Below are positions 10,653-46,823 of a stretch of DNA of 46,823 nucleotides, one piece after another (the first letter of the stretch is position 1; each line of letters opens with the position of its first letter). Under the pieces are notes generated by a model that was not told the DNA's origin, did no database searches, and saw only the letters and a list, made by a program, of their open reading frames with translations. Source of the DNA: Caldifarciminota bacterium (lineage in GTDB: Bacteria > Hydrothermota > Tepidihabitantia > SM23-42); the NCBI GenBank assembly GCA_020343595.1, contig CP070802.1:565112-611934 (forward strand), given 5' to 3'. The translations under genes and the position numbers were made by a program.

Positions 10653-12314
10653 TTACCTGAGCAACAGCAGTTTCTGTGACTCTATGTGATTGTCGACCGA
10701 TAATGTGACGAAATAGACACCGCTACTTAACTTACGATTAGATTGGTCCGTACCATCCCAACTAATCTGCATAGCGCATAGGGCATGGGGCATGGCGTCA
10801 TACAGATTCCATACCAAACGGCCGGTAGCATCATAGATGCTAAGCTCTATGCGCTCTGCGCTTTGCTCTATGCCGAAGCTGACAGTCGTCAGCTTCGTAA
10901 AGGGATTCGGGTTTATCGATAGACCATGCGCCAACGGTTTTTCCTCGTGTTCAGTGACCGCGAGTGGGTCGATTATGATATCGCATATTACCGTATCGCC
11001 TGAGACTGTTATGTTTTTTACCGACACATGAGTGTTGTGGTTCCAGTAGTCAGTACTTGCAGGATAGCTCAATGAGTCGAAGACAGTATTGTTGCTATCC
11101 CCGGGATAGGGGTCACTGGCGTCACCAAGTTCATGATGGTAGTAGTGTGGATCCGGCCTGTAGCCCCAGCCATTGTCAAGATCATCACAGCCGTCGGCTT
11201 CTTCAAGGTCAATGCGATTGTGATAGGCAGAGTAATGCGGATCGATATGCCAGATGAGTAGTCCACTACCAGGGAGCGGTGAATCAAAGCCCTTGTTCTG
11301 GCGGTTCTCAAGAATGAAGAAAGTATCGTTCGCAATCCCGTTCCGCCAGACCCGGTACGCGATCGGATGGGTTTCTGCATCGAGTATTTCGAGATTGAAT
11401 GTGTTAGTAGTGATGTCGATTGGTGTCAGCCAGTTCGATTGGGTTTTGCACCAGGCATCAGCGTGCGATGGGCTCCACGGTGTGTTACCGCCAGCACCCC
11501 ATGCTCCGTATCCCATAAGACTCCAGTATCCGACCCCCCAGGTGTTGCGTGAACCGTCGTAGAGGTCGGGCAAGCCAACAATATGTCCTAATTCATGACA
11601 CATTACGCCTATACAGCACAGTGTCGTATCGAGGCTAGGTGTTACAAGATTTATCTCTGGTACATTGGTCGCACCATCGATTGTGACCCCGTCGTTTGTC
11701 GGATAGTTGAAATAGGGAATCGCATGGGACCAGCAGTTATTAAGGTCGCCAGTATCTTCGCCCCCTGGACCGGCATGCACTATAAAAATACCGTCAATGT
11801 GGCCATCACTATTCTCGTCATACTGGCTAAAGTCAACCACTGCGTCCACAAGGGTAACAGCATCGGATGCGAGTTGGTGACCGGTAGAGAGCATGTAGTA
11901 CCCATCATAGTAATAGCTGTAAGGGTTGATCGACATGTGCCACTGGTTACCGGCGATGCCACCAATGACATTGGTTACGCCGTATGAATTCTCAAGGAAG
12001 AAATCATTGAGGCTGCCGGCACGGTACTGACCACTGTAAACACCAGTTGAGTAGAACATGCTGTCGTATCTTGCAGGCGTGTGCTCGGCAATATTTGCCG
12101 TGTTGTCGCTGAATTGGATCAGTATCGCGCAGGTTTCAATTGTGTAATCCCGCAGATCCTTCGGCTGCTCGAGTGCACGGCCTACGATACAGGAATGTGG
12201 GGAATTCACTGATCTTTGAGCGGGCATGGCCAGTCCGACGGCGGGAGCTGAAGCAAAAGCAAATAGAAAAAAAATCAATGTAACATTCGGAATCAGTGGT
12301 ATTCTTATCATCAT
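10653..12314 (-). CDS. M6-family secreted metalloprotease with type IX-like sorting tail
   Basis: The product is about 553 residues. A signal peptide is followed by an immune-inhibitor-A/M6-type protease domain with zinc site CHELGHIVGLPDLYD (about residue 235), GYWSLMGYGAWG and a downstream LLIWHID motif typical of M6. The last 85 residues (NPNPFTKLTTVSF, IYDATGRLV, SGVYFVTL) form the FlgD-like/type IX secretion sorting module, so it is probably exported across the outer membrane or anchored at the surface. The upstream open frame adds 7 residues, but AAGGAG sits 4 nt before the ATG at 12314 and 7 nt before the next ATG at 12311; either may be used. The tail contains an odd repeat-encoded stretch (10769-10796). 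Confidence 0.9.
   Translation of the reverse strand: MMIRIPLIPNVTLIFFLFAFASAPAVGLAMPAQRSVNSPHSCIVGRALEQPKDLRDYTIETCAILIQFSDNTANIAEHTPARYDSMFYSTGVYSGQYRAGSLNDFFLENSYGVTNVIGGIAGNQWHMSINPYSYYYDGYYMLSTGHQLASDAVTLVDAVVDFSQYDENSDGHIDGIFIVHAGPGGEDTGDLNNCWSHAIPYFNYPTNDGVTIDGATNVPEINLVTPSLDTTLCCIGVMCHELGHIVGLPDLYDGSRNTWGVGYWSLMGYGAWGAGGNTPWSPSHADAWCKTQSNWLTPIDITTNTFNLEILDAETHPIAYRVWRNGIANDTFFILENRQNKGFDSPLPGSGLLIWHIDPHYSAYHNRIDLEEADGCDDLDNGWGYRPDPHYYHHELGDASDPYPGDSNNTVFDSLSYPASTDYWNHNTHVSVKNITVSGDTVICDIIIDPLAVTEHEEKPLAHGLSINPNPFTKLTTVSFGIEQSAERIELSIYDATGRLVWNLYDAMPHALCAMQISWDGTDQSNRKLSSGVYFVTLSVDNHIESQKLLLLR
10769..10796. repeat. Four 7-bp tandem units inside a sorting-domain coding region
   Basis: Units GCATAGC, GCATAGG, GCATGGG and GCATGGC run head to tail within the protease gene and encode residues AMPHALCAM. 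A near-identical block lies at 28345-28372 in the selenoprotein gene. Confidence 0.7.
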
Positions 12315-12334
12315 TGTGCTCCTTTTTGGAATCA

Positions 12335-12363
12335 ATAATACTCGGTTTACGACAGATTGTCAA
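12335..12363 (-). promoter_or_regulatory. Promoter of the M6 protease gene
   Basis: On the minus strand, TTGACA (12363-12358), 17 bp, TATTAT (12340-12335), ahead of AAGGAG and the ATG at 12314. It is divergent from the plus-strand promoter at 12373-12400. Confidence 0.75.
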
Positions 12364-12372
12364 CTCAAGTCC

Positions 12373-12400
12373 TTGACGTGTTTTGGAAAGTGAATAGAAT
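12373..12400 (+). promoter_or_regulatory. Promoter of the exported unknown protein gene
   Basis: TTGACG (12373-12378), 16 bp, TAGAAT (12395-12400). Transcription would begin at about 12406-12407, at the proposed non-canonical start codon of the gene behind it. Confidence 0.7.
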
Positions 12401-12405
12401 GTGGA

Positions 12406-13539
12406 ATCAGAAAAATAATCACTCTCCCGGGTCTATCGACGTTGTTACTGCTCCAACTTGTTTCTTTCGTTCAGGCTGGTGATGAGCAGAACCATGGCAC
12501 TGCCTCCGCTGGTGACACGAATCAATACTTCTTCTACCGTGCATTACCCTACGGAACCCAAGCGAACTACAATCCGATGAATGTGATCATTAATGGAGGA
12601 TATGGTATTCTCCAGATACGCGATTATACCGATGAGTACGACAGAAAGATCTTCACTTATCCATATGGAGCCTGGGGCAGAAATGTTTGGGAGACACTAC
12701 GTCATCCAATGCACACAATTAGTGAATTTGGCTGGTGGCGTTTTATATCCACCGAGGTCCTTCCTCTCACCATCAGGGAGAGGGGCAATCAATGGGTTCC
12801 GAATTATTTCCTGCATACGATCGGCGGCGGGATGCATTTTCGCGCAACAGAGGAGTGGTTCCGGTATCACGGATTCAAGGCTCCGAGGATATGGTCTATT
12901 GGTACGATGGTCGCTTATCATGCATTATCAGAGATCATTGAGAACAGAGGTAACGAAGAGTTGGTCGTGGATCATCTTGCGGACCTGTTGATATTCGACC
13001 CACTGGGGATGCTTCTATTTTCAAATGACAAAGTATGCCGGTTCTTCTCAGAGAAATTGAATCTTGCTGAGTGGTCGATGCAGCCTGTGATCAATATGAA
13101 AAATGGAAATCTGGAAAATATGGGGCAGTTCTATGTCGCAAAATATCCTCTTACGAAGGAAAGGAACTGGCATCTAATGACGCATTTCGGATTACATGGT
13201 ATGTTCGGTTTAACGCACCGCTGGATCGATGGGCAGGCACTGAGCATCGCTGGTGGTTTTCTGGTCGAGGAACTCATAAGGGTAGCCGAAGAAGATACTG
13301 GCAGGGTCCTTACTGCGGTTCTTACCTGGCGAGCAGGAGTGTTCTATGACCGTAATAATTCACTACTCGCATCCCTTATGGTAGCAACCGCGCCAGAATA
13401 CAGGTTAAGATTGAATGTATATCCTGGTGTTTTTAGGATAGGACCTTTCAGTCCGGGGTTTTTTATTTCAGGCAGCAAAGAGTGGGTATTTGGCATGACC
13501 CTTAGATATACGCCGCTCGGTGCAGGATGGGGAGAATGA
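12406..13539 (+). CDS. Exported protein of unknown function, non-ATG start
   Basis: I do not recognise the family. The first conventional start is a TTG at 12442, but the same frame is open back to a TGA at 12391 and gives a convincing signal peptide from 12406 (IRKIITLPGLSTLLLLQLVS, then a VQA cleavage site). An ATC stands where the start should be, 5 nt after the -10 box, the spacing seen for leaderless genes here. Either ATC is used, or one base was mutated or misread from ATG; from TTG at 12442 the signal peptide would lose its charged end. The mature part is rich in aromatic residues with short hydrophobic segments (ATEEWFRYHGF, HALSEIIENRG) and ends in beta-like strands, perhaps an envelope protein. 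Confidence 0.7.
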   Translation: MRKIITLPGLSTLLLLQLVSFVQAGDEQNHGTASAGDTNQYFFYRALPYGTQANYNPMNVIINGGYGILQIRDYTDEYDRKIFTYPYGAWGRNVWETLRHPMHTISEFGWWRFISTEVLPLTIRERGNQWVPNYFLHTIGGGMHFRATEEWFRYHGFKAPRIWSIGTMVAYHALSEIIENRGNEELVVDHLADLLIFDPLGMLLFSNDKVCRFFSEKLNLAEWSMQPVINMKNGNLENMGQFYVAKYPLTKERNWHLMTHFGLHGMFGLTHRWIDGQALSIAGGFLVEELIRVAEEDTGRVLTAVLTWRAGVFYDRNNSLLASLMVATAPEYRLRLNVYPGVFRIGPFSPGFFISGSKEWVFGMTLRYTPLGAGWGE

Positions 13540-13560
13540 TGGGTCATTTGCCGTAAAACC

Positions 13561-13589
13561 TTGACTTTGGGTTGGATTTTCAGTAGAAT
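13561..13589 (+). promoter_or_regulatory. Likely selC promoter
   Basis: TTGACT (13561-13566), 17 bp, TAGAAT (13584-13589). The predicted +1 is 13596, exactly the first G of an isolated copy of the 5' end of tRNA-Sec (GGAGGCG). The complete tRNA starts 200 bp further on. Confidence 0.65.
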
Positions 13590-13592
13590 TCA

Positions 13593-13802
13593 TGTGGAGG
13601 CGCCTCGATACGCTCGGGGCAAATCAGAGATTTGGGCGGACGAAAGATCTATGAAGACTCATTCCATGAAGGATTGGAATGAGTCCGCGAAAACTTGTAG
13701 TTAAATCAGATCTTTGGAATTTCATAGTCCCGTTTCCTTTGGAACACGGGACACTAAAATCTGCAATCAAATCGATAGATTTGAGCAGATTTTGTGGAGG
13801 CG
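13593..13802 (+). repeat. 200-bp segment bounded by 10-bp direct repeats in front of selC
   Basis: TGTGGAGGCG occurs at 13593-13602 and again at 13793-13802, where it forms the start of tRNA-Sec. The DNA between is full of palindromes: CAAATC-AGA-GATTTG (about 13620-13634), an 11-bp stem GACTCATTCCA/TGGAATGAGTC (13656-13666/13675-13685), a GTCCCGT/ACGGGAC hairpin (about 13728-13752) and AAAATCTGC...GCAGATTTT (13756-13793) enclosing CAAATC-GATA-GATTTG. It looks like a small inserted element with target-site duplication, or a structured leader. No protein is encoded. Confidence 0.6.
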
Positions 13803-13889
13803 GATGGGTGCTGGTGTGCCTGACGGGCTTCAAACCCGGATGTCCTTCGAAAGGGGGACGGTAGGTTCGATTCCTACACGCCTCCGCCA
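13796..13889 (+). tRNA. selC: tRNA-Sec (anticodon UCA), selC
   Basis: This tRNA inserts selenocysteine at UGA codons. The gene has the long selenocysteine form: acceptor GGAGGCG pairing with CGCCTCC (an eighth pair would be a G-A mismatch), a 6-bp D stem with 4-nt loop, anticodon TCA at 13830-13832 inside CGGG/CCCG, a long variable arm, T loop TTCGATT, discriminator G and encoded CCA. The selB and selA genes lie 2-5 kb away and three UGA-containing genes lie 13-16 kb away. Its presumed promoter is displaced 200 bp upstream. Confidence 0.95.
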
Positions 13890-19147: not shown

Positions 19148-19870
19148 TCAGAGCGAGAGTGCAGCGCCAATTGCGCCGATGAACTGCGGATGCTCTGGAA
19201 TTGTTACGGCTCCAAAGATCCTTTTCATCGCTCTGATAAGGCCTGGATTTAGGGCGCCGCCGCCACAGAACAAAATTGGTGACTCGATACCTATTTGACT
19301 GCCAATCCCGTCGATCCTCCTGACGAGTGCTTCGCATACTCCAGCCACAATGTCTTCAAGTCGCTTGCCTTCTGCTACGAGACTCAAAATTTCGGTTTCG
19401 GCCATGACTACACACAGGGAATCGATTATCTCGGCGCGGTCAGCGTTTACTGCTAACTGCCCGAACTCGGCCAGGCTAAGGTCGAGGGCTTGTGCAATCT
19501 TCTCAATGAAATTACCGGTTCCGGCCGCACAGCGGTCGTTCATCACAAACCGGTCAACACGCTCCTCTTTGACCTTGATGATCTTACTGTCCTGGCCTCC
19601 GATGTCTACGATCGTTCGAACTGATGGTTCAATATGAGAAGCTCCTTTGGCAAATGCAGTTATTTCTGTTATCGTCTTATCAGCGTTTGCGACGAGATCC
19701 CTTCCGAAGCCGGTGGCGACGATCCTATCATATCCTCTAAGTTCGTTCACGGCACGTTCGACCGCCAGTTTGGGTTTGAATGACGTTTTGAGAACGATCT
19801 TGTTTCTTACGTGTCCATCAAATAAGATTCCTTTTGTATAGCTCGAACCAACGTCTAATCCCAGTACCAT
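19148..19870 (-). CDS. 2-hydroxyacyl-CoA dehydratase/benzoyl-CoA reductase-type activator ATPase
   Basis: This 240-residue protein belongs to the HgdC/BcrD family (ASKHA fold). Dimers of this family hold one [4Fe-4S] cluster and use ATP to push electrons at very low potential into a partner iron-sulfur enzyme. Visible features are the phosphate-binding GLDVGSSYTKG, DIGGQDSK, and both cluster cysteines in NDRCAAGTGNF and IDSLCVVMAETE. The open frame extends 23 residues upstream, but ATG 19870 has AGGAGA before it and fits the family start. It overlaps the preceding methyltransferase gene by 16 bp and is the last gene of the corrinoid operon; its partners are the two dehydratase-like subunits upstream. 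Confidence 0.93.
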   Translation of the reverse strand: MVLGLDVGSSYTKGILFDGHVRNKIVLKTSFKPKLAVERAVNELRGYDRIVATGFGRDLVANADKTITEITAFAKGASHIEPSVRTIVDIGGQDSKIIKVKEERVDRFVMNDRCAAGTGNFIEKIAQALDLSLAEFGQLAVNADRAEIIDSLCVVMAETEILSLVAEGKRLEDIVAGVCEALVRRIDGIGSQIGIESPILFCGGGALNPGLIRAMKRIFGAVTIPEHPQFIGAIGAALSL

Positions 19871-20886
19871 CCGTTCTCCTTTGCAGCATTTATGAATGCC
19901 ATAACATTGTCGAAGGGAGCATGGATAGGAACTTCGCAACCCGTTGCTGCAATGTAGCCTTTAGGTGCCTGCATTGAGAGCTTAACCATATCTCTTACCC
20001 CACTTGCGATTTCTTCTGGAGATGAAAATGCCAATAGCGACGTGTCATAGTTCCCGATCACGCGCACTGTTGAGGATAATTTCTTAATTGTATCCGTCAG
20101 GTCAACACGGTCAATACTTATGAGGTCGGCGTGCGTCTCCTTAAGGAGATCGAGGATCGGCGTAGTATCTCCGCAGATATGCAGGATGACATCGAGGTCG
20201 TACCGGTGCAGGAAATCAACTAGTTTTCTTTCATAGGGGAGAGCGTATTGTCGATATGCCCTCGGGCTTATGACACTCGACGATGCCAGCGGGTCAACGA
20301 TGATGGGCAATCCCCCGGCATCGATGGCGTGGTAACATAATTCGATTGCGGCTGCCAGAGACTTTTCCATGACTGCCTTTACATGGTCCGGTTCTTTGAT
20401 CGTTTGAATGAGAAATCTATTCGGTTCGGAAAGCATCATGCCTGTAGTAAATGGGGCAGGTATATATGCCAGTATGGGAACTCGGTCGCCGAGGGCATCG
20501 TAGGCATATTCGATCGCTTCAAGGTATACTGGTAGTCGTGCATCAGATGTTGGTACCGGGATTTCAATATCATTGATATCCTTTTTCTCAAGGGCAGGTA
20601 TCCTCTGAATCGGCAGATCATTTTCAGGATAGTCAAATTCCGTTCCCATGGCTTCGGCGATGATGCCCACCTCGGAAAAGATCGAGATGGCATCGTGTCC
20701 GTATTTCTCGATGGCGGCGATCTGCGCGCGCGCCATGTTTTCTCCGTTCGTGTAGTAATCCCTGAGTTTCATGCCTCTGACCGAAGCAGCGTGCGAAGTA
20801 ATTAGCGGTATGGTGTTGCAGCGGTCAGGTTTCTCGTCGATCACCAGTAGTCCGAATCTTTCGCGCGGCGTTAGGATATCGGTCAT
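19855..20886 (-). CDS. Uroporphyrinogen-decarboxylase-family (MtaA/MtbA-like) methyltransferase A
   Basis: The 343-residue protein has the UROD-type TIM barrel fold used by methyltransferases that move methyl groups between corrinoid proteins and thiols or other acceptors. A zinc site is suggested by LHICGDTTPILDLL and the late TGCEVPIHAPFDN, with PLASSSVISPRAYRQY between them. This pattern is typical of MtaA/MtbA/CmuA relatives, not of haem-pathway HemE. Its ATG at 20886 overlaps the stop of the upstream gene (ATGA), so translation is coupled. Substrate unknown. It is a partial paralogue of the gene at 23247-24170. Confidence 0.9.
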   Translation of the reverse strand: MTDILTPRERFGLLVIDEKPDRCNTIPLITSHAASVRGMKLRDYYTNGENMARAQIAAIEKYGHDAISIFSEVGIIAEAMGTEFDYPENDLPIQRIPALEKKDINDIEIPVPTSDARLPVYLEAIEYAYDALGDRVPILAYIPAPFTTGMMLSEPNRFLIQTIKEPDHVKAVMEKSLAAAIELCYHAIDAGGLPIIVDPLASSSVISPRAYRQYALPYERKLVDFLHRYDLDVILHICGDTTPILDLLKETHADLISIDRVDLTDTIKKLSSTVRVIGNYDTSLLAFSSPEEIASGVRDMVKLSMQAPKGYIAATGCEVPIHAPFDNVMAFINAAKENGWYWD

Positions 20887-22274
20887 TTTAGCATTTCGAT
20901 GAAAGCTGCGATCCTGGTCCTGATTTGCTCGGTTATACCCAAGGGCGCCGGGATGTCGATTGCGAGTATGGGTACGTTCTTCAATCTTTTTTCGATCGCT
21001 CTTGTTTCCATTGCACAGTGAGAGCAACCCAACATGTTGGTGATGATCACGCCGGCGATTCTGCCGGAATCAACTCCGGCGGAAATATGACGGATTCTTT
21101 CTTCAGTTGAGCCAATGAGTGAAGCGTTCATGAACGATCTGGCGAGGGCGCGGAAAGGATCGATATCTTCTTCGATCTCACTCAACGCCTGGTTAATGAC
21201 ATATTCAGTCGCAACGACGCGACCGCCCAGATCTTCGACGATATTCAGCAGTAAAGGGTCGGCAGTGGGGGTGATCCATGCGAGCGGTATGGCATCCGAA
21301 TCTAAAACACCGTTTCCACTCTTCACACGGTCAATGATCTTGCTTTTTACCATCTCGAGGATATCGATCCACTCATCGATATCTGCATAGCCATATAGGT
21401 TGCCGAATTCAATTACCATCATTTCGAGAGCAGGAAACGGTGCAATTTTGGCTCCATGTGTTAGGGCTTTAATTTGATCCACCAATCTGCGCAATCTATT
21501 GTTCTTCTTTATGCTTTCTCCGAGTTTCTCAGGATCACCGTCATTGGTCAGGTCCTGCATTCGCTGCCATACATGTTTGTATTCGTTGATGAGGTATGTC
21601 TCAAACCGTTCTGGATAGTCAAGACCTTGGGGCGTTCTTGCGTATTTTTCATCCGTAAAGTGATCCTGTTTTTTCCTCCGAAAAGGTATCTCGAGCCAGT
21701 TCAGTTCAAAGCCCATGTCTTCGACCATTTGCATGATACAGGAGTAGTCATCACAGGAAGCGCCTGTTGATGCGAACAGGATATCTGGTTTTGGGAAATA
21801 TGCCATCTTGTGAAAGGCAGCAAGTGTCGACCGGACGAAACAACTCGCTTCAGGTGTACCGAGTTCACTCGCCTTGTCGAGAAGCACGGTCGATTCGTTG
21901 AAAAAGGGAGTCCACCAGGTGCAGTCCGGGTAGAATGGGATGCAGTCGGGAAAAGCCATTGCGATGACAGGGACAGTTCCGAGGTCGCCCATTGTGGCAA
22001 TGATATGTTTTCCGCTTTGCCGCGCACGGAACAGTCTTTCGGATTCATTGAGTGCAAAGCCCCAGAGTCTGAGGGCAGCCAGCGAATTGTCTAATTTCAG
22101 TTTTCTTAGTTCTCGGGCACCATAGACCATGAACGTTGCCGGCGGCGAGAGATAGATGCCCCATTCGTCGTTATTGTAGTATTTGAATCTCCTTATCTCT
22201 GAATCATCGAGCAAGCGGAACTGTCTGCTCCATTCTTTTAAGCTGATCTTCTGCGGGTCTATGTTCTTGAGCAT
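20883..22274 (-). CDS. 2-hydroxyacyl-CoA dehydratase-family subunit (HgdB/BcrC-like), large
   Basis: This 463-residue protein belongs to the family covering 2-hydroxyglutaryl-CoA dehydratase, benzoyl-CoA reductase and the double-cubane cluster proteins. Probable cluster cysteines lie in TGASCDDYSCIMQM (about 170-183) and NMLGCSHCAMETRAIE (about 420-435); WTPFFNES and IPFRRKK lie between. Nothing nearby encodes CoA ligases or acyl-CoA enzymes, so a role as a low-potential electron donor to the corrinoid protein is as likely as a dehydratase role (inference). The ATG follows GGAGATGTT. It overlaps its neighbours by 16 bp and 4 bp. Confidence 0.9.
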   Translation of the reverse strand: MLKNIDPQKISLKEWSRQFRLLDDSEIRRFKYYNNDEWGIYLSPPATFMVYGARELRKLKLDNSLAALRLWGFALNESERLFRARQSGKHIIATMGDLGTVPVIAMAFPDCIPFYPDCTWWTPFFNESTVLLDKASELGTPEASCFVRSTLAAFHKMAYFPKPDILFASTGASCDDYSCIMQMVEDMGFELNWLEIPFRRKKQDHFTDEKYARTPQGLDYPERFETYLINEYKHVWQRMQDLTNDGDPEKLGESIKKNNRLRRLVDQIKALTHGAKIAPFPALEMMVIEFGNLYGYADIDEWIDILEMVKSKIIDRVKSGNGVLDSDAIPLAWITPTADPLLLNIVEDLGGRVVATEYVINQALSEIEEDIDPFRALARSFMNASLIGSTEERIRHISAGVDSGRIAGVIITNMLGCSHCAMETRAIEKRLKNVPILAIDIPAPLGITEQIRTRIAAFIEMLK

Positions 22275-23245
22275 AACATCTCCGCAAATGCCTCGATCCT
22301 GGTTCTTAACTGGCTGTTGCTTTGATAAGAGAAGTCGCTGCGTATTCTCAGTAGTGGCAGGTTGAGTACTTTCTCGATCCTCTGTAGCTCGAATTCATGA
22401 ACGTCGCAGTAATCCAGTGTCCAGGCAATGACTCCTGTACAGTCCAGCCTGGTAATTTCCGATTGCAGAAATTCGTAGTATTTCTGATGTGGCCTTTTAT
22501 ATAAGCAAGGTGGCTGGTTGTAGTACGCTTTTTTGATTCCTTCAATATTCTCTTCTTCAATCTGTATGTGAAGGGGGCGGGATAGTCCGCAGTTGAAGTC
22601 TCCGACAATGCGGAGGTTTGATTCGATCATCTGAAGGATGTGGTTTGCTTCGTATGTAATGGCACTCCCCAATATGTATACCCGTGCTTTCTCCGATGCA
22701 TTCTCGCTGAACGTAACCTCGTTCTCACAGGATCCCGTGTGATAACAGGCCATTGCATTGTGGAATTCTGTTGTGGATGTTAGCGACGGGCAGGCTGCTC
22801 TTTTTTGGTCCATTGCCCTCAGTGCTGCCCGAATTCTTTCCCATTTGCCGATTTCGTCTCTGATGATTTCATTCGTGAATTTTTTCTGGGAAAAGTATTC
22901 GAGTTGTTTGACCAACCAGTCAATTTCATCAGAATATATTTCGGGTTTATCTGTTCTTGGATTGTTCACAACGTATACCGGAATTTTAATGTGTTCACTC
23001 AGAATGTCGAACATGCGTCGAGACATGTCGCATCCGGTTGAGCCCACCAGTGCAGCAAATCGATCTTGATTTTCAAGAACATAGGCGAGATTTGATTTGA
23101 TCATTGGGCACGCATCGATCCTTACTACTTTCTCGCCCCTCTTTGACAGGCTGATCTCGCCGTGGAGTAGTCGGTACGGACGCAGTCCGGTTGCCGAGAG
23201 TATTTCTACTGGTATATAAGAGCATGCATAACCGATCAGCTGCAT
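22259..23245 (-). CDS. 2-hydroxyacyl-CoA dehydratase-family subunit, small
   Basis: This 328-residue protein is a second, divergent member of the HgdB/BcrC-like family. It begins MQLIGYACSYIPVEILSATG, a characteristic N-terminus of these subunits. Candidate cluster cysteines are in RIDACPMIKSN, GSTGCDMSRRMFDIL and WTLDYCDVHEFE. The open frame extends 27 residues upstream into the previous gene, but the ATG at 23245 lies 1 nt after that gene's stop and begins at the family start. With the 463-residue neighbour it probably forms a heterodimer served by the ATPase encoded at 19148-19870. Confidence 0.88.
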   Translation of the reverse strand: MQLIGYACSYIPVEILSATGLRPYRLLHGEISLSKRGEKVVRIDACPMIKSNLAYVLENQDRFAALVGSTGCDMSRRMFDILSEHIKIPVYVVNNPRTDKPEIYSDEIDWLVKQLEYFSQKKFTNEIIRDEIGKWERIRAALRAMDQKRAACPSLTSTTEFHNAMACYHTGSCENEVTFSENASEKARVYILGSAITYEANHILQMIESNLRIVGDFNCGLSRPLHIQIEEENIEGIKKAYYNQPPCLYKRPHQKYYEFLQSEITRLDCTGVIAWTLDYCDVHEFELQRIEKVLNLPLLRIRSDFSYQSNSQLRTRIEAFAEMLCSRT

Positions 23246-23246
23246 T

Positions 23247-24170
23247 CTATCTCTCAATATTACCATACTCGCTGGCGATTCGTAGCATGGTTTTGATGTT
23301 CTCCGGCGGTGTGTGCGGCGGAACATCGCAGGTTGTCGACAGGATCACATTCTTGTTCTCGAGTGCAGTGTCTACCTCAGACTTGATTCGATTCGGATCT
23401 CCGTTAAGTATCGTACTCGTTCCAACTCCACCCATTTTCAAGGTTTCGGTACGAAGTTCAATATCCTCAATGCTCAGGATATCCGCACCCAGCTTATCAA
23501 GATACTCTGATATGGGTCGGACATCGCCGCAGATATGTATGGCAACAAGGGCACCGTGGGTTTTCGTTTTGTCCACCAGGGTTTGAAGTGCTTTGAACGC
23601 ATACTTCAGGAACATTTGGGGTGATATGACACTCGATGAAGCGAGCGGGTCTCCGATCATAATATTGACACCGAGGGAAAGTAATCTTTCTAAATACTGC
23701 AACTGGTATTGCATTGCAGTTTCCATAAATCGTGAAGCTTCGTTCTCCCTTTTCAATATGATTTTCAAATAGTTCTCGATGCCGGCTAAGAAGGAAGCAA
23801 GGGTAAAAGGCCCTTTGACTGAAACGAAGACAGGAACATCGAGTTTCATCTTCAGGATCTTTGCAGCGTGGATGATCTCCGGGGTACGGTCGTACGAATG
23901 CCGGGCTGCAGGTCCAAGGAGGGTTGGGTAGGGCTCAAGCTCGACCGGACAGCCCATCGCTTGTGCTTCAACATAAGGGTCGGAAAAAACCAACACCATG
24001 TCATACCGATAGAGCTCGTGGCAGTATTGGATAACCTGGGCAAGTTTCTCTCCATCTTGAGCGACTTCCTTCAGTGTCAGATTCAACAGATATGCGCCAT
24101 GGTCAGCACATACCATTGGGAATACCGCATGATGTATTTGCCTGCCAATGACTGAAGAAATTTTATCCAC
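23247..24170 (-). CDS. Uroporphyrinogen-decarboxylase-family (MtaA-like) methyltransferase B
   Basis: The 307-residue protein is a second UROD-fold methyltransferase, shorter than its paralogue at 19855-20886. It shares PLASSSVISPQMFLKYAF, the zinc-site IHICGDVRPISEYL and a late STTCDVPPHTPPEN. The start is a GTG at 24170 that overlaps the corrinoid protein gene by 8 bp, with no clear Shine-Dalgarno sequence, so it is probably translationally coupled. The direct link to the corrinoid gene makes it the likely primary methyl donor or acceptor enzyme. Substrate unknown. Confidence 0.9.
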   Translation of the reverse strand: MDKISSVIGRQIHHAVFPMVCADHGAYLLNLTLKEVAQDGEKLAQVIQYCHELYRYDMVLVFSDPYVEAQAMGCPVELEPYPTLLGPAARHSYDRTPEIIHAAKILKMKLDVPVFVSVKGPFTLASFLAGIENYLKIILKRENEASRFMETAMQYQLQYLERLLSLGVNIMIGDPLASSSVISPQMFLKYAFKALQTLVDKTKTHGALVAIHICGDVRPISEYLDKLGADILSIEDIELRTETLKMGGVGTSTILNGDPNRIKSEVDTALENKNVILSTTCDVPPHTPPENIKTMLRIASEYGNIER

Positions 24171-24792
24171 TGACGATTTTTTCGATGAGTTTTACCGCAG
24201 AGGGTCCGTCCGGACTATACCCATCAGCCTTGACGCTTGCGGCGAATTCTTCATTCACCGGGGCTCCGCCGATGATCACCTTCACTGCATTGCGCATGTT
24301 GCGCTTTTCCAATTCCAGGATAATCTCACCCATATGAGTCATCGTCGTAGTCATGAGGCTCGATATTGCCAGTATGTCCGGTTTTTCTCTTTCGACAGCC
24401 TTGACGAATTCCAAAACTGGCACGTCACGGCCCAGGTCAATGACCTCGTAGCCTGCTGCTTCCAGCATGACCTTGACGATATTCTTGCCGATATCGTGTA
24501 TGTCGCCTTCGACCACGCCAAAAACGATCTTTGCCCCCGGTTTTCGAGATGACCCTTTTATGAGTTGCTTTATCTTATCGAATCCGGCGTAGAAAGCTTC
24601 AGAACACAAGAGCACTTCGGGTACATAGTATTCCTTGCGTGCGAAAAGATCTGCCACTTCCTGCATTCCGGCGATCAATCCTTTCTCAAGGATCTCAACC
24701 GGATCCACCTTCTCCTTGAGCGCAATGGATACGCTCTCTTTTGTTTTTTCATCATCCATTTCTATGACTGCTTGCTTTATTGAATCAAACAA
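24163..24792 (-). CDS. Corrinoid (B12-binding) methyl-carrier protein, MtaC/MtbC-like
   Basis: This 209-residue protein has the two-part layout of corrinoid methyltransferase proteins: a helical cap (1-85) and a Rossmann-like B12 domain (about 90-209). The cobalt-ligand motif is EGDIHDIGKNIV, with ISSLMTTTM and IIGGAPVNEEFA. In such systems the Co(I) form takes a methyl group from one methyltransferase and gives it to another. Translation starts with TTG at 24792, just after GGAGGTGAA. A promoter lies about 22 bp upstream, so it leads a sub-operon. Confidence 0.95.
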   Translation of the reverse strand: MFDSIKQAVIEMDDEKTKESVSIALKEKVDPVEILEKGLIAGMQEVADLFARKEYYVPEVLLCSEAFYAGFDKIKQLIKGSSRKPGAKIVFGVVEGDIHDIGKNIVKVMLEAAGYEVIDLGRDVPVLEFVKAVEREKPDILAISSLMTTTMTHMGEIILELEKRNMRNAVKVIIGGAPVNEEFAASVKADGYSPDGPSAVKLIEKIVSG

Positions 24793-27102: not shown

Positions 27103-28137
27103 TTAGGGGGCTAGTGTTACGCGGCCACTGTTCGCAGCCGTTGCGCGGCCTATTACTGCAAAATCCTTTGTGTATTCTCTTTTGAATATTTCGACCCGTT
27201 CTTCTGGCAGGGCGATTATCAGACCGCCGGAGGTTTCCGAGCCAAAGATCAGGTTGACGAGGTTTGAGTCACTACTTCCCTTGTCAACGCGGTTACTAAA
27301 AGAATTGAGATTCATTGTTATCCCCGGCTCGAAAATACCCTGGTCCAGGATTTCTACAGCACCTTCGTGGGTTGGGATTTTTTGCAGTGATAGTTCTATG
27401 CCGATGTTGCTTGCTTCGCTCATTTCAACGAGGTGACCGATAAGACCGTACCCGGTAACGTCGGTGGCACCGTTGGCCTCTGCTTTTCGCATTGCAATTG
27501 AAGCGTCTTTGTTCAGTGATGTCATGGCCGCGATGACCGGCGCCATGTCGATGCCATCGTCCTTACCCATAAGCATCGCCTGGATTATCGTTCCAACACC
27601 AAGGGGTTTGGTCAGAATGAGGACATCGCCGGGTTTGACCCCTGCGTTTGTGATGATCTTCTTAGGATGGATATAACCAAGAACTGACAGACCATACATC
27701 ACCTCAGGTGAGGCAAATGTGTGGCCGCCGATCGTTGTAACACTGGCTTCCTTTGCTTTGTCACTGCCACCTTTCAGCATTTCACCGAGGGTCTTGGGTT
27801 CACCCATACCAGGGTAGCCGACAATGTTCAACGCGAGTTTCGGGTCACCCCCCATTGCATATATATCCGATATGCAGTTCGCAGCCGCGATCATCCCGAA
27901 GGTGTAGGCGTCTTCAACGACCGGTGTAAGAATGTCGATGGTCTTCACTAGTGCCAGATCGTCGTGCAAGCGGTATACACCCGCGTCGTCTGCAGTGTTG
28001 GTTCCAACCAGCAGGTTAGGATCCTCGATCGGTGGCAAATAGGCCAGTGCCTGCGCCAACTGCGCAGCCGAAAGTTTCGATGCTCAACCGGCGCATTTGA
28101 CCGTGGCGAGTATGCCTTTTTTCTTGTTTTCGATCAT
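27103..28137 (-). CDS. selD: Selenophosphate synthetase SelD, itself a selenoprotein (Sec18)
   Basis: SelD makes selenophosphate from selenide and ATP. The full gene is 344 residues from the ATG at 28137, with an in-frame UGA (28086-28084) at codon 18 in KCAG-Sec-ASKLS, exactly where SelD carries its catalytic Cys or Sec. Conventional calling would start at 28059 and lose the active site. Downstream are the ATP-grasping GTNTADDAGVY, TVDILTPVVEDAYTFG, AAANCISDIYAMGG and TTIGGHT. A 6-bp SECIS-type hairpin follows the UGA by 16 nt. The ATG lies 5 nt after a perfect -10 box, so the mRNA appears leaderless. Because SelD needs Sec, its synthesis depends on its own product. Confidence 0.96.
28051..28067 (-). 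promoter_or_regulatory. SECIS-type hairpin in selD
   Basis: On the minus strand, CTGCGC-AGTTG-GCGCAG: a perfect 6-bp stem, 5-nt loop, G at loop position 2. UGA to loop is 22 nt. Confidence 0.85.
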
Positions 28138-28142
28138 GGGTT

Positions 28143-28170
28143 ATTATAACCACCGACAACAGAGTGTCAA
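28143..28170 (-). promoter_or_regulatory. Consensus promoter of selD
   Basis: On the minus strand, TTGACA (28170-28165), 16 bp, TATAAT (28148-28143). Only 5 nt separate the -10 box from the ATG at 28137, which implies leaderless initiation. Confidence 0.88.
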
Positions 28171-28175
28171 TGATA

Positions 28176-28212
28176 GCAAAAAAAGGGCAGCACGCTGAAA
28201 CGGGCTGCCCTT
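28176..28212 (-). terminator. Rho-independent terminator of the Sec-thioredoxin gene
   Basis: On the minus strand, AAGGGCAGC (28212-28204), a 12-nt loop, GCTGCCCTT (28191-28183), then a run of T. It lies 17 nt past the stop of the gene at 28229 and just before the selD promoter. Confidence 0.9.
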
Positions 28213-28228
28213 ATCTATCTCAGATGTG

Positions 28229-30043
28229 TTACTTCAGCAGAACTGTTTTCTCGACGATCTTTGTATCACCGGTTTGCATGGATACGAAATAGACGCCGCT
28301 TGGCAATTGCAGATTAGTGTGGTCTGTTCCATCCCAACTAATCTGCATAGCGCATGGGGCATGGGGCATAGCGTCATATAGACTCTTAACCAAACGTCCG
28401 GCTGCGTCGTAGATATTTATCTCTATGCTCTTAGCGCTTTGCCCAATGCTGAAGTTGATGTTCGTTTGATTGGAGAATATCGTAGGTGATACAATTAGGG
28501 AAATAGCGTTCAGTTCTTCAGGAGTGTTCAGTTCGTTTATACCTGTCACGGATACCCAGACATCGTCAACATACCAGCCTTCAGCATAGGTGCTGTAATC
28601 ACTGACGAGTCTGAATCGCGCACGCACGGTCTGGCCCTGTAGGTTGGCTAGAGAAAACGTTTCCTGTGTCCAGGTTGATTGAATCCCGTTGTATTCGTCG
28701 AGGGTCTGCCACCAACCTGAGCCATTGTCGATTTCCGCATAAGTATAGTCCCAGTTTGTTTCCAAGTTGTATTGGTGATAAAAGGAGAATATGCTATCCT
28801 GTGATACAACGAAATACGGGGAAACAAGTGATAGATCATTTTGATTCAGATAATGCCAGATGTTCTCGACCCCGCAGTACCAGGAATGGGTCGGGGAATT
28901 GCTCTTGTACTCGGTCAAATGCCAATTGTCATATGTTCCGTAATGTGTCCACTCTCCTTCGCCAGATTCCATATCGTCGCTGAATCCTGACTGTGTTGTC
29001 ACTAAGAAGGGTACTGCTGACTCATTCCCGTCGCCGAAGACAAGATTGAATTCAGCAAGATGCGGATCTGGACAGGTTGCGCTGATATCAAATGTCCATG
29101 TTATCACGTCGTCCACATCACCCGGATAGATCTCAAAAGTGTCCACATAGAACGACGTGATGCTGATGTTCGGATCAGTGCATTGCACTGTGGCCGGGAG
29201 CGTGTAGACACTGGTTCCCATATTCTTGCCAAATGCAGTGACCTCCATCTCCTCACCCGGTTCTCCATAGCCGTTACCATTGCCAGTGAGTTCAGTCACC
29301 GTCATGCCGTAGTACACCATGTGAGATTCAGGTATGATCGCTACTTCGGCACCTTGGTATATCAGGCGGCTTGCTGCTTGCACAAAAACAACGATGCGAC
29401 ATTTAGTTTCATCCCAACCTGACTCGACGGTGAAATCCCTTGATCGTATAATGGTATCTGAGGCCGGTACGGTGACCGCCTCACCGGTTGCATCCGGTAG
29501 CATATCGCGCATGACCTGATCGAGTTCGGTCATGCCGCCGCCCCAGTTGTAGGGGATATCGTCTTCGATAAGTGCAAAATGTATGTTACCGTCCACTGCG
29601 CTTGAGGTCGTATTGGTTACAGTCGCCTCGACGTTACCCTGGTTCGTTGTCGAATCGTAATCGCAGGTTAATACTATTTCGATCGGGCTATCAACCGCTG
29701 CGCGCGTTGTGACATGATGGCGGAAGAAGGGATACATGGTGCCGCTAGTGAGACCACCGACTTCAGAAATTGTCCCATCGAACCATGTCGTAGGGGTTCC
29801 GGTTACACCGTAGTATGCTTCACGCGCCTCGGCTTCCGGCGTATTGAATGGATCACTCGACCATATATGATACGAAATAACCGTTAACGTATCATATGCC
29901 CGAGGGTATATTTCGGCAAGACCTCTTGCCGTACCTGGACAGTATGGTCAATTCGTGGCCGTGAATTCCTCTACCACGACCGTTCGCTGACTGCTGTACG
30001 CTACTGCAGTCAATAGCAGACACAGAATAAGGATCTTTCTCAT
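28229..30043 (-). CDS. Secreted thioredoxin-fold selenoprotein (Sec-Pro-Tyr-Cys) with sorting tail
   Basis: Reading the UGA at 29950-29948 as Sec32 gives 604 residues from the ATG at 30043 (ribosome site GGAGG). The layout is: signal peptide (1-18); a thioredoxin-like, Omp28-type domain (about 20-130) with VVVEEFTATN-Sec-PYCPG and the cis-proline loop GVTGTPTTWFDG; a beta-rich middle; a MAM/jelly-roll-like domain (about 355-510, FSDDMESGEGEW, GWYVDDVWV); and a FlgD/type IX-like tail (about 515-604). Homologues normally have Cys-x-x-Cys, so Sec replaces the attacking Cys. Conventional calling would start at residue 103 and lose the domain. A 7-bp SECIS-type hairpin starts 16 nt after the UGA. 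Likely an extracytoplasmic thiol oxidoreductase; substrate unknown. Confidence 0.88.
28345..28372. repeat. Four 7-bp tandem units inside the sorting-tail coding region
   Basis: Units GCATAGC, GCATGGG, GCATGGG and GCATAGC encode AMPHAPCAM in the selenoprotein tail. The surrounding 60 bp are nearly identical to 10746-10807 in the M6 protease gene, although the flanking protein sequences have diverged. Confidence 0.7.
29914..29931 (-). promoter_or_regulatory. SECIS-type hairpin in the Sec-thioredoxin gene
   Basis: On the minus strand, CGGCAAG-AGGT-CTTGCCG: a perfect 7-bp stem with a 4-nt loop. It starts 16 nt after the UGA, and UGA to loop is 23 nt. The loop AGGU is close to the GGUC-type loop of the E. 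coli formate dehydrogenase SECIS. Confidence 0.87.
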
Positions 30044-35469: not shown

Positions 35470-35961
35470 TTGTACAAAAGGTTCAAGGATGGTGATGGGG
35501 AGGCCTTCGAACAGTTGTACCAGAGATTGAGCGGAGGTCTTTTCAACTATTGTGTTAGGTTACTTGGTGACTGGCATTATGCCGAGGATATACTGGTAGA
35601 GACTTTTACCAAATTTGCTCGTTCTGACCTGGACGAGCGTGGAAACATCAAAGCGTGGTTGTACCGTGTTGCAACGAACAGCTGCTACAGTCATTTCAGA
35701 AAGAAAAGAACAGAATCCAAATGTCTTGAGGAGCAGATGCATAGCATTATATCGAATCCGGGACATGATATCGCAGAAGAATTAAGGATCCAGAAAATTC
35801 TCAGCACGTTACCCGAGTATCAGAGAGTTGTTGTTATTTTGAAATTTTACGAACGCATGACTTACAACGAAATAGCCGAAGTGTTGTGTTGCCCGGTAGG
35901 AACAGTGAAGTCAAGGATGCATAACAGTCTAAAGAAGTTGAGGAATTTGATAAAAAGGTAA
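35470..35961 (+). CDS. ECF (sigma-70 family) RNA polymerase sigma factor
   Basis: The 163-residue protein has region 2 (EAFEQLYQRLSGGLFNYCVR, DILVETFTKFA, AWLYRVATNSC) and region 4 (LPEYQRVVVILKFYERMTYN, GTVKSRMHNSLKKL), as expected of extracytoplasmic-function sigma factors. The start is uncertain. TTG at 35470 has no ribosome site, while AGGAGG at 35430-35435 is followed in the same frame by two ATA codons (35437, 35440) and coding-like sequence (IDQTQSVIFKLYKRF), so a longer protein from ATA is possible. The anti-sigma factor follows. Confidence 0.92.
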   Translation: MYKRFKDGDGEAFEQLYQRLSGGLFNYCVRLLGDWHYAEDILVETFTKFARSDLDERGNIKAWLYRVATNSCYSHFRKKRTESKCLEEQMHSIISNPGHDIAEELRIQKILSTLPEYQRVVVILKFYERMTYNEIAEVLCCPVGTVKSRMHNSLKKLRNLIKR

Positions 35962-36007
35962 AGATGTTAGTGATCAGTTCAGCACAAAATCTGGACAGGA
36001 GAAATCT

Positions 36008-36448
36008 ATGAAATGCCAGGAAACGAAGAAACATTTGTTTGATTATGTTCTTGAGGAAATACCGCCCGAACTTCAGATACAAGTTAATGAACACCTCGCG
36101 ATCTGTGCAGAATGCCGCGCGGAATCCGCCAGGATAGGGGAAACGGTCACTGCCTTCAAGAACTCAGTCGCATTCAAGCCTTCCCCCGAGATCTTCTCCA
36201 GGGTCAGGGGTCAAGTACCTTTGAGGAAGCCTAGAAGCGCACGGTTTTTTGGCGTTCCAAGGAGTTTGGTTTATGCGTTCGGGGCTTTCCTTGTAGGTGT
36301 TGTCATGACAAGGTCCATTGATACTTTTGTGGCGGTAGATGATCAGCCCGTTCAGATCGAGGTGAGAGAGGAAAAACTCAGAGAAGTGCCTTATTCTGAT
36401 ACTGTTGAGTTCTATGCAGTGCCAGCTCGGAATCTGGCGCGGATATAG
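36008..36448 (+). CDS. Membrane anti-sigma factor with zinc-finger (zf-HC2) domain
   Basis: The 146-residue protein has an N-terminal anti-sigma zinc-finger: KCQETKKHLFDYV and HLAICAECRAE give the HxxxCxxC ligands. A single transmembrane segment follows (about 95-113, SLVYAFGAFLVGVVM), then a short outer tail. It should hold the ECF sigma factor encoded 46 bp upstream at the membrane until an envelope signal arrives. AGGAG precedes the ATG. The upstream lipoprotein gene may encode part of the sensing or response function (inference). Confidence 0.9.
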   Translation: MKCQETKKHLFDYVLEEIPPELQIQVNEHLAICAECRAESARIGETVTAFKNSVAFKPSPEIFSRVRGQVPLRKPRSARFFGVPRSLVYAFGAFLVGVVMTRSIDTFVAVDDQPVQIEVREEKLREVPYSDTVEFYAVPARNLARI

Positions 36449-44989: not shown

Positions 44990-45430
44990 ATGAACTGGAC
45001 TGTGCATCCTGCAAAGCGTAATCTCAACAAGACGGTTTTGAGCGCAAGTTTCATTATCGCCTTCGTGGTCATTGTAGGCGTATTCTACGGTCTCTTTTGG
45101 AGTCTATTTGGATTCATAATACTTTTCGTGTCAGTTCATTCTTATTTCTTCCCCACAAGCTATGACGTCAATGATGAAGAGATTAAAATAAAGAACATAT
45201 TCATGACTCAGAAGCGAAAGTTGTCTGAATTCAGACGCGTCTACGTGGGGAAGAATGGAGCACTTCTCAGCCCTTTCCGCCGTAAAACTTTTTTGAACCA
45301 ATTCAGGGGTGTTTTCGTGCTCATGCCTGAGAAGCACACTGAAATACTCCAATTTCTCCGTGCACGGATTGAGCCCGATGCCTCACGGGATGAAAAACCA
45401 GAGGAGGTTGGCAAAGATGTCACTCCGTGA
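44990..45430 (+). CDS. Small membrane protein with PH-like domain
   Basis: The 146-residue protein has two hydrophobic segments (about 16-34 and 36-52), followed by a soluble beta-rich part (YDVNDEEIKIKNIFMTQ, SEFRRVYVGKNGALLSPF) that resembles the bacterial PH-like fold found in small membrane proteins. The C-terminus is acidic. TGGAG lies ahead of the ATG. It overlaps the RecJ-like gene by 14 bp, so they are translated together. Function unknown. Confidence 0.75.
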   Translation: MNWTVHPAKRNLNKTVLSASFIIAFVVIVGVFYGLFWSLFGFIILFVSVHSYFFPTSYDVNDEEIKIKNIFMTQKRKLSEFRRVYVGKNGALLSPFRRKTFLNQFRGVFVLMPEKHTEILQFLRARIEPDASRDEKPEEVGKDVTP

Positions 45431-46823
45431 TGCCGATAAGATGCTCATCGAGAAATACGCTACTGATTTCTCGATCCCGCGAGAAGTGGCGGAAATTATC
45501 GCCCGCCGTTTCCCCGAATATGGTGAGGCGAAAAAATATCTATTTCCTGATATCTCGCAGCTTCATGATCCAGGTTTGCTGCCGGATATCGACCGTGCTG
45601 CAGAGGAGATAATCACCGCGGCAAAGAGGGGAGAGGGCATACTCATTTATGCGCACGATGATGTTGACGGATATACGGCAGCCGCAGTCATGTACAAGGC
45701 GTTGGATGATATTACCAAGGGTAGTGGTACCCTCCATGTCTACCCGATAATCCGTGAAAAGGACGGCTACATATTGAATCCTAGCGTCCTTTCATCTTAT
45801 CGAGAGAAGGGAGTGAGGTTGTTGCTTACGGTAGATTTTGGCATAAGTAATGAAGATAACTTCCGCATAGCTGAGCAAGAGGGATTAAAGGCGGTCATTT
45901 GTGACCATCATGAGACAAAACTTACTGATTTCCCGATCGCTGCAGTTAATCCTAAGAGACGGGATTCACGGTATCCTTTTCGGGATTTGGCAGGAGTGGG
46001 GGTTGCATTCAAACTTGCACAATTCGTCTACCAGAAGTTCTTTGACATAAGCGCAAACGAATTCTATAGCCTGAAGAGATCGTTTTATCCGATCGTCTGT
46101 ATTGGAACTTTTGCCGACCGTGTGGCATTGTATAATGAGAACCGGGTTTTCTGCATCAACGGGTTGCGTTTGATGGAGAATATAGATGATGCATGGGCCA
46201 CTTGTCTCAGAGAGTCCGGTGAAATTGAGATGCACAGGGTGATCAAGGAGGTATTACCAACGATTGGTTCAGCAGCATATAACGATCCGAGATTGGGTGT
46301 CGATTTTTTTATTGAGAAGGACCTCAATCGAGTTCGGGGGATATACGCTACTCTGAAGGATACTGACCAGAAACGCCGTCAGGAAATCGACAGCCTGTTC
46401 AGCGAAGTGATATCCAGCGCCGAGGTGACTTCAAGATTGGTCATTTCTCTTGTACCTCTGTCAAAGCAGCACTATCTTGGTTCGGTGGCGGCACGGTTGC
46501 GCGATTATTTCAAGCGCAACTGTTTGATCATCGGTATCAGGGATGACAAGTGCATAGGAGAACTCAGGAGTTGTGATTTTGACCTGTACAAGTTGCTCTA
46601 CAGGATGCGGGATTTCTTTCTGGATTTTGGCGGGCATAAGAAGGCGGCTGGTTTCTCGATGGAGAAAAGACATCTGGAGATATTCCTCAAAGAGTTCAGA
46701 GAGTATGTCGAGCATCAGCTTCCCGACATACTCGATGGCTATGGATCGACAGAACCAGCACCAGAGGCTTTCCTGCGCCGATCAGACGTAGCCATGCTCA
46801 AGACGTTGATGCCTTTTGGTGAA
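45417..46823 (+). CDS. RecJ-like DHH/DHHA1 nuclease or phosphoesterase (3' end beyond window)
   Basis: This open frame of 469 codons has no stop before the window ends, so the protein is partial. It begins at ATG 45417 after GAGGAGG. The DHH domain shows YAHDDVDGYTAAAVMY, LLTVDFGIS, VICDHHETKL and NPKRRDSRYPFRDLAGVGVA. The DHHA1 part has LDFGGHKKAAGFSMEK, near residue 400. These are the marks of RecJ, a 5'-3' single-strand DNA exonuclease in repair, or a related DHH phosphoesterase. The first metal motif reads DDVDG where RecJ usually has DADG. The missing C-terminus would normally hold the OB fold. Confidence 0.9.
   Translation, partial: MSLRDADKMLIEKYATDFSIPREVAEIIARRFPEYGEAKKYLFPDISQLHDPGLLPDIDRAAEEIITAAKRGEGILIYAHDDVDGYTAAAVMYKALDDITKGSGTLHVYPIIREKDGYILNPSVLSSYREKGVRLLLTVDFGISNEDNFRIAEQEGLKAVICDHHETKLTDFPIAAVNPKRRDSRYPFRDLAGVGVAFKLAQFVYQKFFDISANEFYSLKRSFYPIVCIGTFADRVALYNENRVFCINGLRLMENIDDAWATCLRESGEIEMHRVIKEVLPTIGSAAYNDPRLGVDFFIEKDLNRVRGIYATLKDTDQKRRQEIDSLFSEVISSAEVTSRLVISLVPLSKQHYLGSVAARLRDYFKRNCLIIGIRDDKCIGELRSCDFDLYKLLYRMRDFFLDFGGHKKAAGFSMEKRHLEIFLKEFREYVEHQLPDILDGYGSTEPAPEAFLRRSDVAMLKTLMPFGE

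What the first reader, a model, noticed from the sequence alone, without database searches (positions are those of the whole stretch)
28229..30043. Secreted thioredoxin-fold selenoprotein with Sec-Pro-Tyr-Cys and a type IX-like tail
The UGA at 29950-29948 replaces the first Cys of an Omp28/thioredoxin-type CPYC motif. A perfect 7-bp hairpin (loop AGGU) follows by 16 nt. Upstream sequence supplies a signal peptide and ribosome site. The thioredoxin cis-Pro motif (GTPTTWFDG) is in frame after the UGA. A selenoprotein exported through the envelope with an extracellular sorting tail would be unusual in bacteria.
Basis: partly seen in the sequence, partly recalled or inferred. Interest (0 to 1): 0.9.

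Follow-up and report, generated by a model that had tools for sequence, protein, structure and literature searches.

The report
Surface thioredoxin-like selenoprotein with export tail
An uncultured bacterium of the WOR-3 group encodes a secreted thioredoxin-like protein in which the rare amino acid selenocysteine replaces the key cysteine and a C-terminal tag marks it for export to the cell surface; the selenoprotein kind is known, but joining it to this export route appears undescribed.

Summary
The Sec reading is as strong as sequence alone allows. Fifteen other full-length orthologues keep UGA at this codon and 13 have Cys codons; Sec and Cys interchange at least 4 times on the tree. In the close Sec orthologues the hairpin is the most synonymously conserved stretch of the gene (rank 1 of 541; 354 of 471 in Cys orthologues). 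The window carries tRNA-Sec, SelA, SelB and a Sec-containing SelD. The predicted fold of residues 17-238 matches HBP35 of Porphyromonas gingivalis (Z 25.4, 2.2 A), a type IX-exported protein with thioredoxin activity. A MAM-like domain and a tail over the TIGR04183 cut-off follow. The genome encodes SprA, PorU and PorV over curated cut-offs; GldK/L/M models found nothing. Prior art: UxxC Trx-fold selenoprotein GOS_C (2008; now NF045500, 'Omp28-related selenoprotein'); this protein scores 73 bits against a cut-off of 200. Verdict: real; a new variant of a known kind, most likely a surface thiol-disulfide oxidoreductase.

The parts
28229..30043 (-). Selenoprotein gene, 604 aa with UGA read as Sec, stop TAA
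30050..30055 (-). Ribosome binding site AGGAGG
   Evidence: read directly
29987..30043 (-). Signal-peptide-like N-terminus (MRKILILCLLLTAVAYSSQ)
   Evidence: sequence; a hydrophobic start is present in the orthologues whose start is complete
29948..29950 (-). In-frame UGA, Sec32, first position of the U-P-Y-C motif
29914..29931 (-). SECIS-like hairpin, 7 bp, loop AGGU, 16 nt after the UGA
29330..29995 (-). Thioredoxin-like domain plus beta domain (residues 17-238), HBP35/Omp28-like
   Evidence: Pfam Omp28; VIA-align Z 25.4, rmsd 2.2 over 214 residues to 5y1a
28541..28996 (-). MAM / cleaved-adhesin-like jelly roll (residues 350-501)
28241..28477 (-). T9SS type A-like C-terminal sorting domain (residues 523-601)
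   Evidence: TIGR04183 28.6 bits against cut-off 23; FlgD_ig is the rival Pfam match
28183..28212 (-). Terminator-like hairpin followed by a T run, between this gene and selD
   Evidence: fold -19.5 kcal/mol, z -4.6
27103..28137 (-). selD (selenide, water dikinase), itself with an in-frame UGA (U18, VKCAGUASKL)
   Evidence: TIGR00476, 322 bits
17650..19056 (-). selA
   Evidence: PF03841, 471 bits
15560..17482 (-). selB
   Evidence: SelB winged-helix and barrel domains
13796..13889 (+). tRNA-Sec (UCA anticodon)
   Evidence: ARAGORN; Rfam RF01852, 75 bits

Best explanation
The gene encodes a selenoprotein. SelB and tRNA-Sec read UGA 29950-29948 as selenocysteine, directed by the hairpin just downstream. 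The product passes the inner membrane by its signal peptide. Its HBP35/Omp28-type thioredoxin-like domain folds with an active site U32-P-Y-C35. The C-terminal type A sorting domain is recognised by a type IX system (SprA, PorV, PorU), which moves the protein to the cell surface or outside. There it acts as a thiol-disulfide oxidoreductase, Sec32 being the attacking nucleophile and Cys35 the resolving residue; the MAM/cleaved-adhesin-like domain holds it to a substrate or surface. Shown here by sequence: Sec coding, domain order, predicted fold, tail, presence of Sec machinery and of T9SS core homologues. Inferred: actual export, the redox direction, the substrate and the role of the jelly-roll domain.
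For: Sec/Cys pairs at U32. At least 4 Sec-Cys switches on starred branches of the tree. The hairpin is the top synonymous-conservation window in the 10 closest Sec orthologues, 354th of 471 in Cys orthologues. The one variable stem pair changes G-C to A-U on both sides at synonymous positions. RNA after the UGA folds more stably than after Cys codons (22 against 22, P = 7e-6 on z). Sec machinery in the window. Placement beside selD is kept in four same-genus relatives. Fold match to HBP35; the profile match to 5y1a runs 17-42 to 33-58, which puts U32 on HBP35 Cys48, one of the two cysteines needed for its thioredoxin activity (PMC2907840). HBP35 reaches the surface by the Por system (PMC3120885). 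Tail and T9SS core.
Against: No protein evidence for Sec or for surface location. The tail also matches FlgD_ig. GldK, GldL and GldM models find nothing in this genome, although for L and M the control genomes did not ring either. The synonymous and covariation signals come from related sequences, with only one stem pair varying. The more distant Sec clade (L027, L030-L033) shows no fold signal over shuffles (z near 0).
Confidence: 0.78

Rival explanations
1. It is a selenoprotein, but it stays periplasmic or outer-membrane bound: the C-terminal Ig-like domain is a generic adhesion or anchoring module (FlgD_ig-like) rather than a working T9SS signal.
For: FlgD_ig scores higher than Por_Secre_tail in Pfam; GldK/L/M models not found.
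Against: TIGR04183 over cut-off here and in orthologues; SprA, PorU and PorV over cut-offs and dozens of tail-bearing frames in the genome; the best structural relative HBP35 is itself a T9SS cargo (PMC3120885).
Confidence: 0.2
2. The UGA is a nonsense mutation and the gene is a pseudogene or makes a truncated product.
For: A 502-aa ORF restarts after the UGA.
Against: The UGA is kept in 15 further full-length orthologues down to 37-39% identity, the downstream sequence is conserved, and Cys stands there otherwise.
Confidence: 0.01
3. UGA is read as an ordinary amino acid (Trp or Gly recoding) in this organism.
For: None beyond the open frame.
Against: TGA ends 9 of 28 window genes; tRNA-Sec, SelA, SelB and SelD are all present; orthologues carry Cys here, not Trp or Gly.
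Confidence: 0.005
4. The protein is mainly a binding protein (for example of heme, like HBP35) and its redox centre is secondary.
For: HBP35 binds hemin through residues 135-344 whether or not the Cys pair is intact (PMC2907840).
Against: The U/C-x-x-C pair is invariant in all orthologues, and keeping costly Sec points to redox use.
Confidence: 0.12

Closest known systems
HBP35 of Porphyromonas gingivalis (PDB 5y1a)
   Same: Thioredoxin-like domain plus beta domain with Z 25.4, 2.2 A over 214 residues; C-x-Y-C-P-G motif; T9SS C-terminal domain; thioredoxin activity and surface location shown experimentally (PMC2907840, PMC3120885)
   Different: Cys instead of Sec; 344 aa, so without room for the extra beta and MAM-like domains; different phylum; hemin binding not tested here
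Hypothetical protein GOS_C / NF045500 Omp28-related selenoprotein
   Same: Trx-like fold, UxxC, Sec/Cys homologues (PMC2398784); NF045500 matches residues 15-235 at E 2.5e-20
   Different: 73 bits against a cut-off of 200; none of 147 genomes of this phylum reaches the cut-off; the rest of the protein is not covered by the model
Omp28 (PF11551) / Omp28 family outer membrane lipoprotein (NF033782)
   Same: PF11551 over its cut-off (60.4 against 34.9)
   Different: NF033782 61 bits against a cut-off of 150; Sec; extra domains
Gingipain cleaved-adhesin / MAM domains
   Same: Jelly-roll fold of residues 350-501, Z 13-15 to Kgp adhesin domains
   Different: Attached to a thioredoxin-like domain, not to a protease

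Membership tests
Bacterial selenoprotein | In-frame UGA aligning with Cys in homologues | tested here: met
Bacterial selenoprotein | SECIS-like stem-loop shortly after the UGA with G in the loop | tested here: met
   16 nt spacer, 7 bp, loop AGGU; constraint on synonymous sites
Bacterial selenoprotein | Sec machinery in the genome (SelA, SelB, SelD, tRNA-Sec) | tested here: met
Bacterial selenoprotein | Selenium found in the protein | not testable with these tools
   needs mass spectrometry or 75Se labelling
NF045500 Omp28-related selenoprotein (GOS_C) | Score over the curated cut-off of 200 bits | tested here: not met
   73.2 bits; 0 of 147 phylum genomes over the cut-off
PF11551 Omp28 | Score over the gathering cut-off | tested here: met
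   60.4 bits against 34.9
Thioredoxin-like oxidoreductase | CxxC/UxxC at the start of helix 1 and a Pro before the opposite strand (cis-Pro position) | tested here: met
   U32-C35 at the start of helix 35-48; P84 invariant, just before strand 85-88
Thioredoxin-like oxidoreductase | Disulfide reductase or oxidase activity | not testable with these tools
   needs an assay
T9SS type A cargo | Signal peptide | tested here: inconclusive
   judged by eye from the sequence; no predictor available
T9SS type A cargo | C-terminal TIGR04183 domain over cut-off | tested here: met
   28.6 against 23
T9SS type A cargo | Genome encodes translocon, sortase and shuttle (SprA, PorU, PorV) | tested here: met
   387, 449 and 214 bits against 200, 420 and 90
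T9SS type A cargo | Genome encodes motor and ring parts (GldK, GldL, GldM) | tested here: inconclusive
   no match to TIGR03525, TIGR03517, TIGR03513; no control genome rang for the last two

The most novel reading that the evidence does not exclude
[quoted passage not shown] This genome has four such proteins, all with type IX tails, and some relatives have more. Selenium would then work outside the outer membrane as a routine surface chemistry in this phylum.
Probability: 0.5. Interest if true: 0.72.

Novelty: new variant of a known kind. Interest (0 to 1): 0.52.

Why it matters
Selenocysteine is costly and easily oxidised, so a selenoenzyme sent through two membranes to the cell surface raises a clear question: what does it reduce or oxidise there, and how is it recharged? 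The close likeness to HBP35, whose thioredoxin activity and type IX export are established, makes this testable. Annotation pipelines would start such a gene after the UGA and hide the active site: here the standard-code ORF starts about 70 residues past the Sec. The finding also extends T9SS core genes to a phylum where the searched papers do not mention them.

Tried and rejected
A search of the genome for the same hairpin (up to 2 mismatches) gave only this exact site; the other hits that were examined have no convincing in-frame UGA context, and the control pattern gave more hits than the pattern itself, so the hairpin alone does not find further selenoproteins. Plasmid records hold no relative of the redox domain. 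Co-transcription with selD: a terminator-like hairpin and a perfect sigma-70-type promoter match lie between them, so a shared transcript was not assumed. In-frame UGAs in other extended frames (12226-13704; the start of 45255-46823) lack a redox motif or homologue support and were dropped. Papers with 'selenoprotein' and 'Omp28': none. Papers with 'type IX secretion' plus 'selenoprotein' or 'selenocysteine': one each; the second mentions them in unrelated places, the first, a rabbit diet study with one mention of each term, was not opened. Two WOR-3 genome papers do not mention secretion systems or selenium proteins.

Full report
What is there. The minus-strand frame 28229-30043 is open over 604 codons except for one UGA at 29950-29948, residue 32. 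It begins with a strong ribosome site (AGGAGG) and a signal-peptide-like start. The motif is T-N-U-P-Y-C-P-G. A 7-bp hairpin with loop AGGU starts 16 nt after the UGA.

Is the UGA selenocysteine? Five lines agree. (1) In 29 full-length sequences from the same phylum the position is UGA in 16 (this gene included) and TGC or TGT in 13, never anything else. Cys35 of the motif is invariant. (2) On a tree built without that column, Sec and Cys interchange at least four times on well-supported branches. (3) In the ten closest Sec orthologues the hairpin codons are the most synonymously conserved 7-codon stretch of the whole gene (79% identical codons against 44.5% on average; rank 1 of 541), while in the Cys orthologues the same stretch is unremarkable (rank 354 of 471). 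The one stem pair that varies does so as G-C to A-U on both sides, at third codon positions. Because only one pair varies and the sequences are related, the covariation count alone is weak; the contrast with the Cys orthologues is the stronger evidence. (4) Across 22 Sec and 22 Cys sequences, the RNA after the codon folds more stably in the Sec set (P = 7e-6 on z-scores); related sequences are not independent, so this P is indicative. A distant Sec clade (L027, L030-L033) has GC-rich hairpins in the same place but no excess over shuffles. (5) The window itself holds tRNA-Sec, SelB, SelA and a SelD that has its own Sec. UGA is still a common stop, so this is not a new code.

What is the protein? 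AlphaFold2 with the 29-sequence alignment gives mean pLDDT 87. Residues 17-238 match HBP35 of Porphyromonas gingivalis at Z 25.4 and 2.2 A over 214 residues, well above the next chain, 2axo, at 19.1; Foldseek also ranks HBP35 first. The profile match runs residues 17-42 to 33-58 of the chain, which puts U32 on HBP35 Cys48 and C35 on Cys51. HBP35 has thioredoxin activity that is lost when Cys48 and Cys51 are replaced (PMC2907840), and it reaches the cell surface by the Por/type IX system (PMC3120885). Residues 350-501 form a MAM-like jelly roll also seen in gingipain adhesin domains. Residues 523-601 are a sorting-domain match over the TIGR04183 cut-off.

Is the tail meaningful? The genome has SprA (387 bits, cut-off 200), PorU (449, cut-off 420) and four PorV-family proteins over cut-off; the PorU search also lights up about 45 C-terminal tails across the genome, this gene's among them. 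GldK, GldL and GldM models find nothing; for L and M no control genome rang, so this says little. [quoted passage not shown] I therefore hold export by a T9SS as likely but inferred.

Surroundings and relatives. The organism belongs to Caldifarciminota (WOR-3): record titles of the nearest relatives and taxonomy. In this genome and in four same-genus relatives the gene lies between an MFS gene and selD; a fifth relative (L006/L035) shows the MFS side but no selD match. The gene and selD are separated by a terminator-like hairpin and a 12/12 promoter-like site. The own genome encodes three more Omp28-type proteins with an in-frame UGA in a UxxC context, each with a TIGR04183 tail over cut-off. 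Many relatives in the phylum have further short Omp28-type frames with one TGA; only those in fetched loci were checked at the codon.

What is known and what is new. UxxC Trx-fold selenoproteins of this broad type were first reported as GOS_C in marine metagenomes (PMC2398784), and a 2026 review links GOS_C to NF045500 (PMC13188914), which NCBI names Omp28-related selenoprotein. This protein is a relative but fails the NF045500 cut-off (73 of 200 bits), as does every match in the 147 genomes of the phylum that were searched, so it is not filed in that family. The thioredoxin-plus-type-IX-tail design is known with Cys from HBP35. The new part is the union: a Sec version, with added domains, repeated within genomes of a phylum not described as having a T9SS. 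No paper in the searched library joins selenoproteins with Omp28; the two that hold selenoprotein or selenocysteine together with type IX secretion appear unrelated. The library is partial. Whether NF045500 members also carry T9SS tails was not tested.

Mechanism, with marks. Shown by sequence: Sec coding, UxxC in a thioredoxin-like fold, tail, core T9SS homologues. Inferred: export, reduction or oxidation of thiols or disulfides with Sec32 as nucleophile and Cys35 resolving, adhesion by the jelly roll. Confidence in the whole: 0.78; in the Sec reading alone it is above 0.95.

Noticed in passing
19148-24792 (-): A BcrAD-type ATPase, two HGD-D proteins, two URO-D-family proteins and a B12-binding corrinoid protein sit between selA and selD, and the order is kept in L036 (and in part in L037). 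The function is unknown; such a reductase/methyltransferase set beside sel genes is worth a look.
   Followed up: partly
28143-28170 (-): A 12-of-12 match to the sigma-70 consensus (TTGACA-16-TATAAT) ends only a few bases before the likely selD ATG, so selD may be read from a leaderless mRNA or start elsewhere.
   Followed up: no
G000:C1 821272-824457, 1300825-1305024, 1345928-1346965 (L055, L050-L052, L063): PorU, SprA and PorV homologues over curated cut-offs in a Caldifarciminota genome, with no GldK/L/M match: a possible reduced or divergent type IX system outside the groups where it has been described.
   Followed up: partly
L011 (1501-3306 and from 3455), L024 (1498-3321 and 1-1254): Tandem pairs of the Sec gene, both copies with UGA and the same hairpin.
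   Followed up: partly
L012, L015, L016, L017, L019, L021, L026, L028, L034: A shorter thioredoxin-like protein with a CxYC or CxFC motif (several with a lipoprotein-like start) lies near the Cys form of the gene, perhaps a redox partner.
   Followed up: no
alignment A1, residue 31 of the window protein: Most Cys orthologues have Trp just before the active Cys (W-C-x-Y-C), most Sec orthologues do not: the residue before the nucleophile seems to change with the Sec/Cys switch.
   Followed up: no
10653-12335 (-): M6-type peptidase with a Por_Secre_tail, another likely type IX cargo in the window.
   Followed up: no
L002, L003, L004: Three further Omp28-type selenoprotein candidates in the same genome (ETUGSCT, EGUPTCP, SGUPTCP), each with a short hairpin with G in or next to the loop after the UGA.
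   Followed up: partly
35470-36448 (+): Sigma-70-family (ECF-like) factor next to a zinc-finger anti-sigma-like protein.
   Followed up: no
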